Source of the DNA: Niveibacterium sp. SC-1
GTDB taxonomy: Bacteria; Pseudomonadota; Gammaproteobacteria; Burkholderiales; Rhodocyclaceae
Assembly: GCF_038235435.1 (NCBI RefSeq)
Contig: NZ_CP151275.1
Coordinates: 4,774,001-4,838,000, forward strand
Reading direction: 5' to 3'
Length of the DNA stretch: 64,000 nt
Shown: positions 43,724 to 50,710 of the stretch, piece after piece
Layout of the letters: each line of letters opens with the position of its first letter
Position numbering within the stretch: the first letter of the stretch is position 1
The notes under the pieces: generated by a model
The model's database searches: none
Seen by the model: only the letters and a program-made list of their open reading frames with translations
What the model was told of the DNA's origin: nothing
Position numbers and translations under genes: made by a program

Positions 43724-45388
<1,665 letters not shown>

Positions 45389-45582: not shown

Positions 45583-46938
45583 ATGGCAGAGCTCAGCGAT
45601 CTCTTCGTCGTTCTCCGTTCCGGACCGCTGCCAGCCGCAGCCCTTTGCGAGCGGCTGGGCGTCAGCCGTCCGACGCTGTCGCGTCTGGTGGCCGCCGCTG
45701 GCGAGCGCGTGCTGCGCTACGGACGCGCCCGCGCCACGAGCTACGCCTTGCCGCGGACGGTCGCCTCGCAGACGCGGTTTCCGATCTTCCGGATTGAAGC
45801 CGATGCCCGCGTGCGGGAGATCGGCCGGCTAGAGCCCGTTGCGCCACACGGCTACCTCGTATCCCTGACCGAGCATGACGCAGCGGAGTACTTCGAGGGG
45901 CTGCCCTGGTGGCTGCAGGACATGCGGCCACAGGGCTTCCTCGGCCGGGCCTTCGCCCTGCGCGAGGCCGGGGCGCTTCGCCTGCCTGCAGACCTGCGCG
46001 AGTGGAGCGACGACGACGTACTGACTGCCCTCGCCACCACCGGCGACGACTGGATCGGCAACCTCATCGTGGGCGATGCGGCGCTCGCCCGGTACCTCAA
46101 TGGGCCACAAGCTGAACCCCTGCAGGCCGAAGATCGTCCGCAAGGTTTCCCGATACTCGCGGCGGCAGCCCTGGCGGGCGAGCTACCCGGCTCATCCGCG
46201 GGCGGCGAGCACCCCAAGTTCGCAACGCAGATCGAAGAGGACGGACTGATCCGTCCGGTGCTGGTGAAGTTCAGCAGCGCGGCGGACAACCCCGTTGCAC
46301 GCCGCTGGGCCAGCCTGCTCGTGGCCGAACACCTCGCGCTCCAGACCCTCGCCGCAGCCGGTCTTCCGGCCAGCCGCAGTACCTTGTTCGAATTCGGCGG
46401 ACAGGTATTCCTGCAGGTGGAGCGCTTCGACCGCGTACCCGCTGCTGCGAGCGCGACAAATCGGCCTGGCCGCGCTGGCGTCGTCTCGCTGGGCGCACTC
46501 GACTCCGCCTTTGTCGGCCAGGCCAACCGCCCCTGGCCGATCATCACCGCGGCCCTTCTTGCGCAAGGCCACATTACGGCTGACGCGCACCGCCGGACAG
46601 AGCGGCTCTGGGCATTCGGCCGCCTGATCGGCAACAGTGATATGCACGGCGGCAACCTGGCCTTCCTGCACACCGGCAGCGCCGTACTGGAGCTGGCCCC
46701 CGCCTACGACATGCTCCCCATGACTCTCGCCCCCCGCGTCTCCGGCGAAGTGCCCAACGTCGAGCCCGAAGTCGCGATTGCTGCCCCCGCGCCGCTGGAC
46801 GCCTGGCGAGAAGTCCTGACCTTGGCGAGGGACTACTGGCCGCGGGTTGCAGAGGACTCGCGAATAGAGGTCTCGGTCCGCGCCATCGCCGACAGGATGT
46901 CTCAACGGATGGCCGCGCTCGCAGCACAGCTGGGCTGA
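45583..46938 (+). CDS. yjjJ: HipA-family kinase of YjjJ type with N-terminal helix-turn-helix
   Basis: 451 aa from the ATG at 45583. Residues 1-60 form a winged helix ([21 protein letters not shown]), which replaces the separate HipB antitoxin; E. coli YjjJ is built in the same way. The HipA kinase part has the Gly-rich loop [10 protein letters not shown] (204-213), the lysine K229 in VLVKFS, the catalytic NSDMHGGN (351-358) and the metal Asp376 in APAYDM, so it appears active. HipA kinases phosphorylate tRNA synthetases or other translation factors and stop growth; the target here is unknown. Two GTTTCA direct repeats lie before the start. The gene is bracketed by ettA 3'-end copies. Confidence 0.9.
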
Positions 46939-46975: not shown

Positions 46976-47236
<261 letters not shown>

Positions 47237-47313: not shown

Positions 47314-48045
47314 CTATTCGATGTCCAAGAATTCTGCACTAGACATGGGCACATAGCCCTTCGGTACGGCACCAGATAGCTCTACCAAAACTCGCCGACT
47401 AATTGGCGCGTCGCCATTGTTGCGAATGACACTCGCTCTAAAGTTGTCGCAGCTGTCTCCAGCCTCAATAAGATCTTTGGCCAAGTATCGTGGCGACCAG
47501 CCTACGGTCAAGTAGTCATTCGAAAGTACCAATAGAGCTTTCCCTGCAACGGGGTTCCCGTATTCGCATGCCACCCTCAACTCTTCTCCATCTCTTAACG
47601 CAAACGCTCGCTCTTGCGCAGCGAGAGTCAAGTGCCGAAGCCCGTGAATAAAGAAACGAGAAGAGAATCTTCCCGATGCATCTACTTCTAGTTTTGGAAA
47701 GATCTCGAAATCATCCGTCTGCCGCTCTCCTCCAGAAACTGCGAGGATCTGGATCGGATCAGCATCATCACCGAGACCAAGCGAACGAAGGTAGTCTGAG
47801 AAACTACGCCGACTAGAATCCACTACGCGATTTTGGAATAGGGGGAAAAGCTCAGCGGACTTGTAGCGAGTTCTTAAATCTGGAAAAGATGAAATCGGAT
47901 GAAATCCATCCGCTCGGCTCGCAAATAGGGCGCCACGCGTATATCGAAATTCGTATGTAGCATTCGCGACATCGGCGTCCAGCCGCCCAATCGGATACCA
48001 CGCTCGCGTTGTTGGTGCTTGCCAAGCAAGAAACAAAGTCTTCAT
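47314..48045 (-). CDS. HipA N-terminal-like domain fused to HIRAN domain
   Basis: 243 aa. Residues about 1-95 look like the HipA N-terminal subdomain ([18 protein letters not shown], then [11 protein letters not shown], and [14 protein letters not shown]). Residues about 131-235 fit a HIRAN domain ([43 protein letters not shown]), a fold that binds DNA ends in eukaryotic helicases. The start overlaps the kinase stop by 4 bases (ATGA), so the two are one unit. In HipBST systems a separate HipA N-domain protein (HipS) is the antitoxin; a comparable role here is inference. Base composition is visibly AT-richer than the surroundings. Confidence 0.7.
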
Positions 48046-49106
48046 CTGGCTAGCCTCGCCAATTCTTCGTAGGTGAACCCGAGCAACGCACGGGCAAAAT
48101 CTCTGCCGAGATTCGTGATGCGGCTGCTGGGAACAGGATCGATTACTTCCTTGATGCTGTCTAGCGGAGTGTCAGCGAGTCGGCTCAACGATGGTCGGAA
48201 GTACTCCGGAAACCTTCTGGATGCGACATCGACGAGCCGAAGGGGGTTCGCGGCATGTTTGTCCGTTGATCGAAGGTAGATGCCTCCGCGACCTCTCGCC
48301 ACATAGCTTTCAAGTCTTCCGTCTCGGAGAATTCTCGCCCGCCTTTCGTCAAGCAGTTCGCGACCGAGCGAGGATGCGTGATCAAATGATGGTGCAACTG
48401 AATACGCGTAAGCCAATTGAGGGCGTTCCCAATCCTCCTCGGTTTCGTCGCGTAGCTGGGCTTGCCACAAAAGCCCCCAATTTTCGTGATGACGGTCAAC
48501 ATTGCAAATGAGGGCATCCAGAACCAAGTACCCAGCAAGGATCCTTAACACTTGGTTTGCAAGTTCCTCCGTTCGGAACATTTTTTCGATGGCTAGGACT
48601 ATATTGTCAATTGTGTGGGCGCTTTGACGGTGGCGTCTGGTCCCGTCATAGCCTAATACCCGTCCTGCAAGAATTTCGTTTCCGTGCTCTAGATGTTGTC
48701 CATGTGGAGCCAGGAAGCTTAGCGTCGCACTACCGCGGCGCCCTTCAAATTCTGCGAGTTCGACGGTAGCCGCTCGAACATTGATTTGCCTTGCAACTTC
48801 TGCCGCAACCTTTTCGGCCCAGTCTTCGCCGGTGACAACCTCGCCAGTCGCTGTTTTTATCGTGCGGGAGAACTTGAAGAGCCAGCGGTCTTCCTGATTA
48901 CGCCCCAGTCCGAACCAATATTTGTCCTTGGTTCCAAGAGGCTCGTCCGAAAGTTGGTTTGCGGCCTGAAGCTTTAGAATTGGGTATGGCAATTTGACTT
49001 TCGGTCGTGATTGCTTCGAACCGTTGATGGCGTAGGGCGACACTCTATCCCGGATTTCACTGCGCGGGTCCGGACCTCTCAGTCCGTGTTGGCGAATACC
49101 GATCAA
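48042..49106 (-). CDS. HipA-like Ser/Thr kinase without its N-terminal subdomain
   Basis: 354 aa from a TTG at 49106, chosen because AGGAGG lies 5 bases upstream; ATGs at 49142 and 49145 lack a comparable site. Kinase features: a Gly-rich loop equivalent LGTKDKYW (57-64), Lys78 in WLFKFS, the catalytic loop NVDRHHEN (202-209) and Asp242 in APSFDHASSLG, so it should be active. The HipA N-terminal subdomain is absent and instead resembles the front of the next gene. Together they look like a split HipA toxin module. No HipB-type regulator is adjacent. Composition suggests horizontal transfer. Confidence 0.75.
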   Translation of the reverse strand: MIGIRQHGLRGPDPRSEIRDRVSPYAINGSKQSRPKVKLPYPILKLQAANQLSDEPLGTKDKYWFGLGRNQEDRWLFKFSRTIKTATGEVVTGEDWAEKVAAEVARQINVRAATVELAEFEGRRGSATLSFLAPHGQHLEHGNEILAGRVLGYDGTRRHRQSAHTIDNIVLAIEKMFRTEELANQVLRILAGYLVLDALICNVDRHHENWGLLWQAQLRDETEEDWERPQLAYAYSVAPSFDHASSLGRELLDERRARILRDGRLESYVARGRGGIYLRSTDKHAANPLRLVDVASRRFPEYFRPSLSRLADTPLDSIKEVIDPVPSSRITNLGRDFARALLGFTYEELARLAR

Positions 49107-49204
49107 CCTAGCCTCCTGCGGCACATGTCTCCACCACCACATCATGAGGATGCCCCGAGAGGGGCTCACAAAGTGAGCCACCGATCCGCCATATGCGTTA
49201 GCGA

Positions 49205-49239
49205 GTAGCCCGGATGCAGGCGCAAGCCGGAATCCGGGG
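49205..49239 (+). repeat. REP element A
   Basis: Begins GTAGCCCGGATGCAGG and ends GGAATCCGGGG; the arms can pair as a hairpin. This is the common GTAG-type REP family of beta- and gammaproteobacteria. Confidence 0.85.
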
Positions 49240-49259
49240 CTTTCCCCTCGACGCGACCA

Positions 49260-49288
49260 CCCCCGGCTTCCATTACGCTCCATCCCGG
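49260..49288 (-). repeat. REP element A', inverted partner
   Basis: CCCCGGCTTCCATTACGC followed by TCCATCCCGG, the reverse orientation of element A, separated from it by about 20 bases. A and A' make a head-to-head REP pair on the left of the RAYT remnant. Confidence 0.7.
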
Positions 49289-49300
49289 TCACGACGGACT

Positions 49301-49766
49301 CGACTCGTGGTTCTGTATCGGCGGAAATGCGTCGCAGGCGGGGCCTACTTCTTCACCGCGACCTTGCAGGGTCGGACCTGCTGGTGCTGCACGTCAATCT
49401 TCTCCGTGAATGCGCCGCGGAACTCAGACGGGCGCGTCCCTTCGACATCGACGCGATAGTGGTATTGCCGGACACCTGCATGCGATCTGGACCTTGCTGC
49501 CGGACGACCACGACTACTCAGGACGCTGGCGCGCGATCAAGTAGGGCTGTGTGCGCCGGCTGACGAAATCCGGAGCGGCGCAATGCGCGCGGCGAAGCCG
49601 ACGTGTAGTAGCGACGCTTCTGGGAGCACGCGATCCGCGACGAGCCGGATTTGAATCGGCACCTGGACTAAATCCTACAGCCTGGTCAAGCACGGCCCCG
49701 CCGGGCGCCCCTCCGACTGGCCGCACGCCAGGACTTCGGGCAACGCGGGTTCGGCGAGCGACCGGC
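49301..49766 (+). pseudogene. REP-associated tyrosine transposase (RAYT), decayed
   Basis: Translation in successive frames gives RAYT signatures in order: YRRKCVAGGAYFFTATL, LLVLHVNLLRECAAELRRA with RPFDIDAIVVLPD, HLHAIWTLLPDDHDYSGRW (the HUH motif, HLH), RRFWEHAIRDEPDLNRHLD, then VKHGPAGRPSDWPHA. At least two frameshifts split the first 240 bases, stops occur at about 49542 and 49671, and there is no usable start. Intact RAYTs are Y1 single-strand transposases that spread REP sequences. This copy is dead, although its two flanking REP pairs remain. Confidence 0.85.
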
Positions 49767-49823: not shown

Positions 49824-49854
49824 CCCAGATTCCGCTGCGCTGCATCCGGGCTAC
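49824..49854 (-). repeat. REP element B', inverted partner
   Basis: CCCAGATTCCGCTGCGC followed by TGCATCCGGGCTAC, the reverse complement of the GTAGCCCGGATGCAG type. With element B it forms the right-hand REP pair. Confidence 0.85.
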
Positions 49855-49888
49855 GCTCTCAGGCGTGACGTACACCGAGGAGCAAATG

Positions 49889-50710
49889 ATGGCCCGAAGC
49901 ATGGCCCACCTTAAGTTGGAACCGAACACTCCGCCACGGACAGCCACCCGAACGCTGACCGCATCACTCGCCGCCCTGGTCGCACTCGCGAGTGTGGTCG
50001 CGATCGTTCTCTCTCTGCTCGGCTATGGATTCGCCCTAGCCGTAGAGTCCGAACTCAACATTCCCCACGCCCAGCTTCTGGGAACGTCGTCAGATCTATT
50101 GAGCCTTTCGACTTACGCGATCATGGAAGCTCTCACCGCCCCTTTTTGGGATATCTGGAGGGCGCAGCAGGGACAGATGCTCGGGGCTGCCATCGTGACC
50201 GCCATTGCGTCCATGGTGGTTGTTGCATTCATCTCGCGCAAAGACATCTGGCCGGGTTTGAAGTGGCAACGGAAGAAACGGCGAACGCCTGAACAGCGGA
50301 GGCGTTTCTTGATCCGGCTCATCCCGATCTTTGGCGTGTTCAGCGGGCTGACGATCTATGCCCTGTACGCGCTCACGATTGCCGCGGTCTACGTCGTAAT
50401 CGCCCTCCTCGCGACGACACCCGCGATCGGCTTCGCTAGTGGTCAGCGATTCGTCGAGAAGCATGTGGTTCAGCCCGAGATATGCGCGCCCTTGCGACCT
50501 AGAGGTGCACGCCTGTCGGCCAGAGAATCCGCCAAGACGCCACCCGCCGCGACCTGCCTGCAGGTCAGCGCCGACAACAAGGTGATTGCGAAGGGCCGAC
50601 TTGTCGCCGCGACAACCGGGAGCATCGTTCTATTCGATCCGACGTCCGGCGCGGCGCGGCGGGTGCCAACGCAGGGGGTTGTCGTCCAGCCCATCTCCTC
50701 GTTGGACTAG
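49889..50710 (+). CDS. Membrane protein of unknown function
   Basis: 273 aa. GAGGAG lies 6 bases before the ATG at 49889 (another ATG is directly before it). Hydrophobic segments at about 25-50, 95-115 and 145-185 indicate three or four membrane spans; a basic loop (KWQRKKRRTPEQRRR) lies between the second and third, probably in the cytoplasm. The C-terminal 80 residues are soluble, with two Cys and a beta-rich pattern (VIAKGRLVAATTGSIVLFD). I do not recognise the family. It lies just right of the REP/RAYT region and may belong to the same accessory block. Confidence 0.75.
   Translation: MARSMAHLKLEPNTPPRTATRTLTASLAALVALASVVAIVLSLLGYGFALAVESELNIPHAQLLGTSSDLLSLSTYAIMEALTAPFWDIWRAQQGQMLGAAIVTAIASMVVVAFISRKDIWPGLKWQRKKRRTPEQRRRFLIRLIPIFGVFSGLTIYALYALTIAAVYVVIALLATTPAIGFASGQRFVEKHVVQPEICAPLRPRGARLSARESAKTPPAATCLQVSADNKVIAKGRLVAATTGSIVLFDPTSGAARRVPTQGVVVQPISSLD

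What the first reader, a model, noticed from the sequence alone, without database searches (positions are those of the whole stretch)
47314..49106. Split HipA-like kinase with a HipS-like/HIRAN partner: a possible new toxin-antitoxin or defence module
The two genes overlap by ATGA. The second (48042-49106) is a HipA-like kinase that keeps LGTKDKYW, NVDRHHEN and the activation Asp but has no HipA N-terminal subdomain. The other (47314-48045) carries a HipA N-terminal-like domain joined to a HIRAN domain. HipBST systems are known to separate the HipA N-subdomain (HipS, the antitoxin) from the kinase (HipT). Here there is no HipB, and a HIRAN DNA-end-binding domain takes the remaining space. That suggests a kinase held by a DNA-sensing partner, which would suit a defence or DNA-damage-triggered system. 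The pair has visibly lower GC content than its surroundings, consistent with transfer.
Basis: partly seen in the sequence, partly recalled or inferred. Interest (0 to 1): 0.9.

Follow-up and report, generated by a model that had tools for sequence, protein, structure and literature searches.

The report
hipIN kinase and HIRAN partner pair

Summary
47314-48045(-) encodes a 243-aa protein whose confident model (pLDDT 92) is a HipS-like domain (residues 1-119) joined to a HIRAN domain (122-239). They overlap by ATGA, and GC is about 53% against 62-72% around.

It is not new. Gerdes et al. 2021 (PMC8262856) named this organisation hipIN and proposed the same idea: HIRAN senses phage DNA ends, the kinase is released, infection aborts. 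PADLOC lists the pair as PDC-M03 (E 2e-86, 9e-79). The window holds a new, apparently intact member.

What I add is context. Of 80 relatives in genomes, 71 have the kinase directly upstream, and 27 have type I restriction genes on the same strand (21 of 71 with the kinase, 6 of 9 without). The pair also sits in phage and viral contigs (both genes in 52 of 53 loci examined). In one related restriction operon the kinase is replaced by another gene pair exactly at the hipN start codon. These favour defence. DNA triggering and the kinase target remain untested.

The parts
48042..48992 (-). hipI: short HipA-like Ser/Thr kinase, 316 aa, start TTG 48992 (GTG 49043 or TTG 49106 possible upstream)
   Evidence: Pfam HipA_C E 4.9e-8; PADLOC PDC-M03A E 1.8e-86; alignment of 42 kinases; start from relatives
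47314..48045 (-). hipN: putative antitoxin/sensor, 243 aa, HipS-like domain (residues 1-119) + HIRAN domain (122-239)
48042..48045 (-). ATGA overlap of hipI stop and hipN start (translational coupling likely)
   Evidence: sequence; a 4-nt overlap also in 28 of 71 genome loci with both genes (my count from the list)

Best explanation
The pair is a hipIN module (PADLOC candidate PDC-M03). HipI is a HipA-family Ser/Thr kinase; HipN binds it through a HipS-like domain and holds it inactive, as HipS does for HipT. HipN's HIRAN domain binds nucleic-acid ends, most likely those made during phage infection or by restriction, which loosens the hold; HipI then phosphorylates a host translation component and growth stops, aborting infection. 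Shown here: domains, HipN fold, intact catalytic motifs, gene overlap, patchy distribution, restriction-gene and phage contexts of relatives. Inferred: inhibition (by homology), the DNA-end trigger (HIRAN fold only), the target, and defence activity of this copy.
Against: No experiment on any hipIN was found (searches; mostly listings seen). The window copy has no type I restriction genes near it: the genome's two HSDR_N matches lie millions of bases away, and 53 of 80 relatives show none on the same strand in the stretch held (many contigs are short). HipN genes without HipI are more often beside restriction genes (6 of 9) than those with it (21 of 71; my count), so part of the restriction link may belong to HipN, not to the pair. 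The docking of HipN on the kinase was not settled (pTM 0.59). An integrase-like hit near hipN was found in only 3 of 53 viral loci, with two probe integrases. PADLOC's label is a prediction.
Confidence: 0.6

Rival explanations
1. Plain toxin-antitoxin module: HipN is the antitoxin and its HIRAN domain only binds nucleic acid for autoregulation or localisation, with no phage trigger; the module persists by addiction.
For: HipS-like fold; gene overlap and mobile contexts: matches in 8 plasmid and 5 phage records; patchy, 4 of 199 family genomes including the window's own.
Against: Tested HIRAN domains bind DNA ends (PMC8262856) and are predicted to act independently of sequence (PMC11706625 passage), which suits sensing better than promoter binding; repeated neighbourhood of restriction genes is not expected of a simple addiction module.
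Confidence: 0.2
2. Restriction guard: like PrrC beside EcoprrI (recalled), hipIN watches a type I restriction enzyme and fires when it is inhibited or when its breaks persist.
For: 27 of 80 relatives have same-strand type I genes, 9 of 46 testable loci on both sides.
Against: The window copy and 53 of 80 relatives show no such neighbour in the stretch held; so it can hardly be the general rule.
Confidence: 0.12
3. Non-defence regulatory kinase pair, for example a DNA-damage-responsive growth brake for the host's own use.
For: HLTF, whose HIRAN domain binds DNA ends, is implicated in fork remodelling (PMC8262856); the neighbours scanned are ordinary chromosomal genes (ABC-F, methyltransferase, DUF502, FUSC).
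Against: Absent from the 5 other same-genus genomes and rare in the family; low GC; phage and restriction contexts of relatives.
Confidence: 0.08

Closest known systems
hipIN modules (Gerdes, Baerentsen and Brodersen 2021, PMC8262856)
   Same: Gene order kinase then partner, short kinase without N-subdomain-1 (279-321 aa quoted for the four short families together), HipN = HipS-like + HIRAN; same functional hypothesis
   Different: No difference found; place in the published Hip Tree not tested here
PADLOC PDC-M03 (PDC-M03A kinase + PDC-M03B HIRAN protein)
   Same: The two adjacent proteins match at E 1.8e-86 and 9.1e-79
   Different: PADLOC label is a candidate; no test seen
HipBST (E. coli O127, Legionella)
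   Same: Kinase separated from its N-subdomain; HipS fold in the partner
   Different: No HipB found; partner is downstream, not upstream; HIRAN added
hipL (kinase-HipS-HIRAN in one chain, PMC8262856)
   Same: Same three domains in the same order
   Different: Two genes here; the 552-aa fusion I met (P0241) looks by eye like a frameshift read-through, not a true HipL

Membership tests
hipIN (Gerdes 2021) | Short HipA-like kinase lacking N-subdomain-1 | tested here: met
   316 aa from the family start, HipA_C only, Gly-rich loop near the N terminus
hipIN (Gerdes 2021) | Core Hip kinase motifs conserved | tested here: met
   G20, K22, K24, K40, D166, N171, D204 invariant in 42 kinases; assignment to HipA motifs is recalled; activation loop not examined apart
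hipIN (Gerdes 2021) | Downstream HipN with N-terminal HipS-like domain | tested here: met
hipIN (Gerdes 2021) | HipN C-terminal HIRAN domain | tested here: met
[quoted passage not shown]
   No tree against the published set was built
hipIN (Gerdes 2021) | HipN neutralises HipI | not testable with these tools
   Needs expression; putative in the paper too
PADLOC PDC-M03 | Adjacent PDC-M03A and PDC-M03B matches | tested here: met
HipBST | HipB HTH gene in the operon | tested here: not met
   Of the minus-strand ORFs of 60 aa or more within about 1.7 kb upstream of the kinase, five were scanned and none matches an HTH family at E up to 1 (ORFs)
HipBST | HipS encoded upstream of HipT | tested here: not met
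   HipN lies downstream
Anti-phage system | Protects against phage | not testable with these tools
   Only contextual support

The most novel reading that the evidence does not exclude
HipN is a stable DNA-end sensor lodged in type I restriction operons whose effector slot is swappable: HipI in most, PIN or Fic proteins directly upstream in some. HipN would couple restriction-made or phage DNA ends to different growth-stopping effectors. The sharpest sign is L050 against L045: HsdM (83%) and hipN (94% from base 2 of its start codon) match in DNA, but HipI is replaced by a DUF+PIN pair.
Probability: 0.12. Interest if true: 0.65.

Novelty: new member of a known kind. Interest (0 to 1): 0.35.

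Why it matters
hipIN is a published but, as far as my searches show, untested family with a clear hypothesis: a kinase toxin held by an inhibitor that carries a DNA-end-binding fold. If true, it would be a protein-kinase abortive-infection switch triggered by DNA ends. The restriction-gene and phage placements counted here give concrete reasons to test it as defence, and the gene exchange at the hipN start codon gives a specific prediction about partner swapping. This particular locus adds one more member rather than a new kind.

Tried and rejected
A true HipL fusion was sought to see how HipN docks on the kinase. A joined query gave P0241 (552 aa), P0242 and P0243; by eye their kinase parts are out of frame or deleted against relatives, so I read them as broken copies. 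P0241 was folded as deposited with an unpaired alignment; the domains are mostly good (mean pLDDT 86.3) but pTM 0.59 leaves the docking undecided, and coordinates are not given for measuring it. A HIRAN scan of 398 genomes of the phylum (matches in 32) listed no frame of HipL size: the only one over 450 aa is 714 aa (G019), not followed up.

No HIRAN or HipS chain was found in the PDB by sequence; only the fold comparison showed them. NCBIfam has no family for either protein at E up to 1. Papers: PDC-M03 by name 0 papers; HipN with HipI 1 paper; HIRAN domain with phage and defense 11 papers, listings seen, two of them opened; 'phage defence candidate' with PADLOC and 'embedded' 0; HipA with type I restriction, embedded and defence 1, unrelated by its title; two of three PDC terms 73 papers, 25 listed, one opened for passages; HIRAN with toxin-antitoxin, phage and kinase from 2021 on 5 papers, two of which I had opened before. 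The preprint behind the PDC list is not held and I did not read it, so I cannot say whether it reports the restriction neighbourhood of PDC-M03. PMC12988326 does not name PDC-M03 (one search found no paper that does). HLTF DNA-contact residues could not be checked in print, so I make no claim on whether this HIRAN keeps them. The idea that 49214-49563 is a transposase remnant got no Pfam support.

The genus comparison did not give a clean empty site: downstream of ettA the genus differs. The gene at 49865-50710 has no Pfam family and no match in the 6 other same-genus genomes.

Full report
What is there. On the minus strand, 48042-49106 and 47314-48045 are open and overlap by ATGA. The 119 other listed kinase relatives are 280-345 aa and their shared N terminus corresponds to TTG 48992 in the window, so the likely product is 316 aa; GTG 49043, behind a GGGA stretch, is an alternative. 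The partner is 243 aa; most listed relatives are of about that length. GC is 0.53 across the pair against 0.62-0.72 in the 1-kb windows that do not touch it.

What is already known. Gerdes, Baerentsen and Brodersen 2021 (PMC8262856; [quoted passage not shown] They already suggest that HIRAN recognises DNA ends of invading phages or replication intermediates, activating the kinase and aborting infection. PADLOC-DB 2.0.0 names both proteins: PDC-M03A (E 1.8e-86) and PDC-M03B (E 9.1e-79). Passages of PMC12988326 say that PDCs came from a guilt-by-embedding approach and that most of the common ones await validation; PDC-M03 is not named there. Passages of PMC11706625 report deoxydinucleotide nuclease genes next to HipA and HIRAN genes. 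In the library searched I found no experiment on a hipIN; most subscription papers and bioRxiv preprints are not held there.

Relatives in genomes. A scan of genome contigs gave 80 kept loci of 106 confirmed, from many phyla. In 71 of 80 a HipI-profile ORF lies upstream on the same strand, nearly always within about 25 bases of hipN or overlapping it (exceptions L076 and L101, where the kinase is truncated); 28 of those 71 have a 4-nt overlap (my count). Nine of 80 have none: L050, L055, L075, L077, L100, L106, L108, L116, L122; in L122 hipN is at the contig edge. Some adjacent kinases are in two frames or cut short (for example L061, L067, L076, L086).

Context. I clustered 965 neighbouring ORFs of the 80 loci. 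Apart from hipN and hipI, two clusters stand far above the rest: 44 ORFs in 28 loci and 22 ORFs in 22 loci, against 5 loci for the next. By Pfam, of these 66 proteins 26 match Methylase_S, 20 N6_Mtase and 22 HSDR_N: type I restriction-modification. Members on the strand of hipN occur in 27 of 80 loci: 21 of the 71 with HipI and 6 of the 9 without (split counted by me). HsdR begins within about 1.6 kb downstream of hipN in 16 of the 64 loci with at least 1.5 kb of sequence there, HsdM/S lie within 6 kb upstream in 17 of the 58 with 3.5 kb, both in 9 of 46. This fits PADLOC's embedding logic. The other 53 of 80 show no such gene on that strand in the stretch held, and the window's genome has only two HSDR_N matches, millions of bases from the window. 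PMC8262856 does not mention restriction operons in the sections that I read.

Viruses and plasmids. HipN relatives occur in 5 phage records and 8 plasmid records of the collections searched and in 50 IMG/VR loci. Of 53 viral loci examined (those 50 plus three of the five phage records), 52 have HipI directly upstream; the other, L212, is cut at its edge. The 53 fall into 25 types at 95% DNA identity. In two fetched Vibrio cyclitrophicus records with a PM2-like capsid gene and in Clostridioides phage phiCDKH02 the pair lies next to the integrase. An integrase-like hit near hipN was seen in only 3 of 53 loci, but the probes were just two of those phages' integrases, so this says little.

Partner exchange. 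L050 (HsdM-HsdS-DUF-PIN-HipN) and L045 (HsdM-HsdS-HipI-HipN) share 83% DNA identity in HsdM, patches in HsdS, and 94% in hipN, beginning at the second base of the hipN start codon; between HsdS and hipN there is no DNA match. The DUF+PIN pair recurs right after hipIN in L076 (38% and 42% protein identity; its DUF also in L071), where the HipI is truncated. Upstream of other kinase-less HipN genes stand Fic (L075, L116), PIN (L106) and DUF7002 (L100) proteins, and in L055 a protein without a Pfam family; L077 has HsdR upstream, and the upstream gene of L108 was not scanned. A tree of 81 HipN proteins places the kinase-less ones in several separate branches. I read this as a variable slot in restriction operons; whether HipN works with these other proteins is unknown, and L050 could be an assembly chimera.

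The window's own locus. The pair lies convergent to a YjjJ/HipH-type kinase gene (45583-46938, NCBIfam E 2e-157). HipN was found in 4 of 199 genomes of the family, own genome included, and in none of the 5 other same-genus genomes listed in that search. The contig lengths of the three other family hits (36019, 25900, 35286) equal those of records titled Rhodocyclaceae, Betaproteobacteria and Azoarcus, so the window's family is probably Rhodocyclaceae. Low GC plus patchiness support acquisition by transfer.

Verdict. The reading of the anatomy is right and now structurally supported; the claim of novelty is not. My own estimates: identity as hipIN about 0.97; inhibition of HipI by HipN perhaps 0.7; a DNA-end trigger perhaps 0.45. 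Interest is moderate.

Noticed in passing
window 46976-47236 against 45124-45388: The last about 264 bases of the ABC-F (ettA-like) gene are repeated at 90-93% identity about 1.85 kb downstream, bracketing the YjjJ-type kinase gene. Same-genus G072 has ettA then yjjJ and a weaker (71%) ettA-tail copy about 9 kb on; G184 has a yjjJ end followed by an ettA tail. Possibly an insertion hotspot.
   Followed up: partly
window 45583-46938: A second Hip-family kinase, YjjJ/HipH type with N-terminal HTH, sits convergent to hipIN.
   Followed up: partly
G000:C1:2574455-2574928 (L002): A HipA_C match with an internal TAG, a probable broken hipA homologue elsewhere in the genome.
   Followed up: no
window 49195-49219 and 49840-49864: 25-nt inverted repeat, 84% complementary, 620 nt apart, just upstream of hipI; looks to me like repetitive extragenic palindromes. 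Two ORFs of the interval gave no Pfam hit.
   Followed up: partly
L050 1-4816 against L045 6298-10791: HipI replaced by a DUF+PIN pair exactly at the hipN start codon within a related type I restriction operon.
   Followed up: partly
L159, L160 (PQ189359.1, PQ189286.1): Vibrio phage records with a PM2-like capsid gene carry hipIN beside the integrase.
   Followed up: yes
L061, L067, L076, L086: HipI genes split between frames or truncated while hipN stays open; decay of the kinase or sequencing errors.
   Followed up: no
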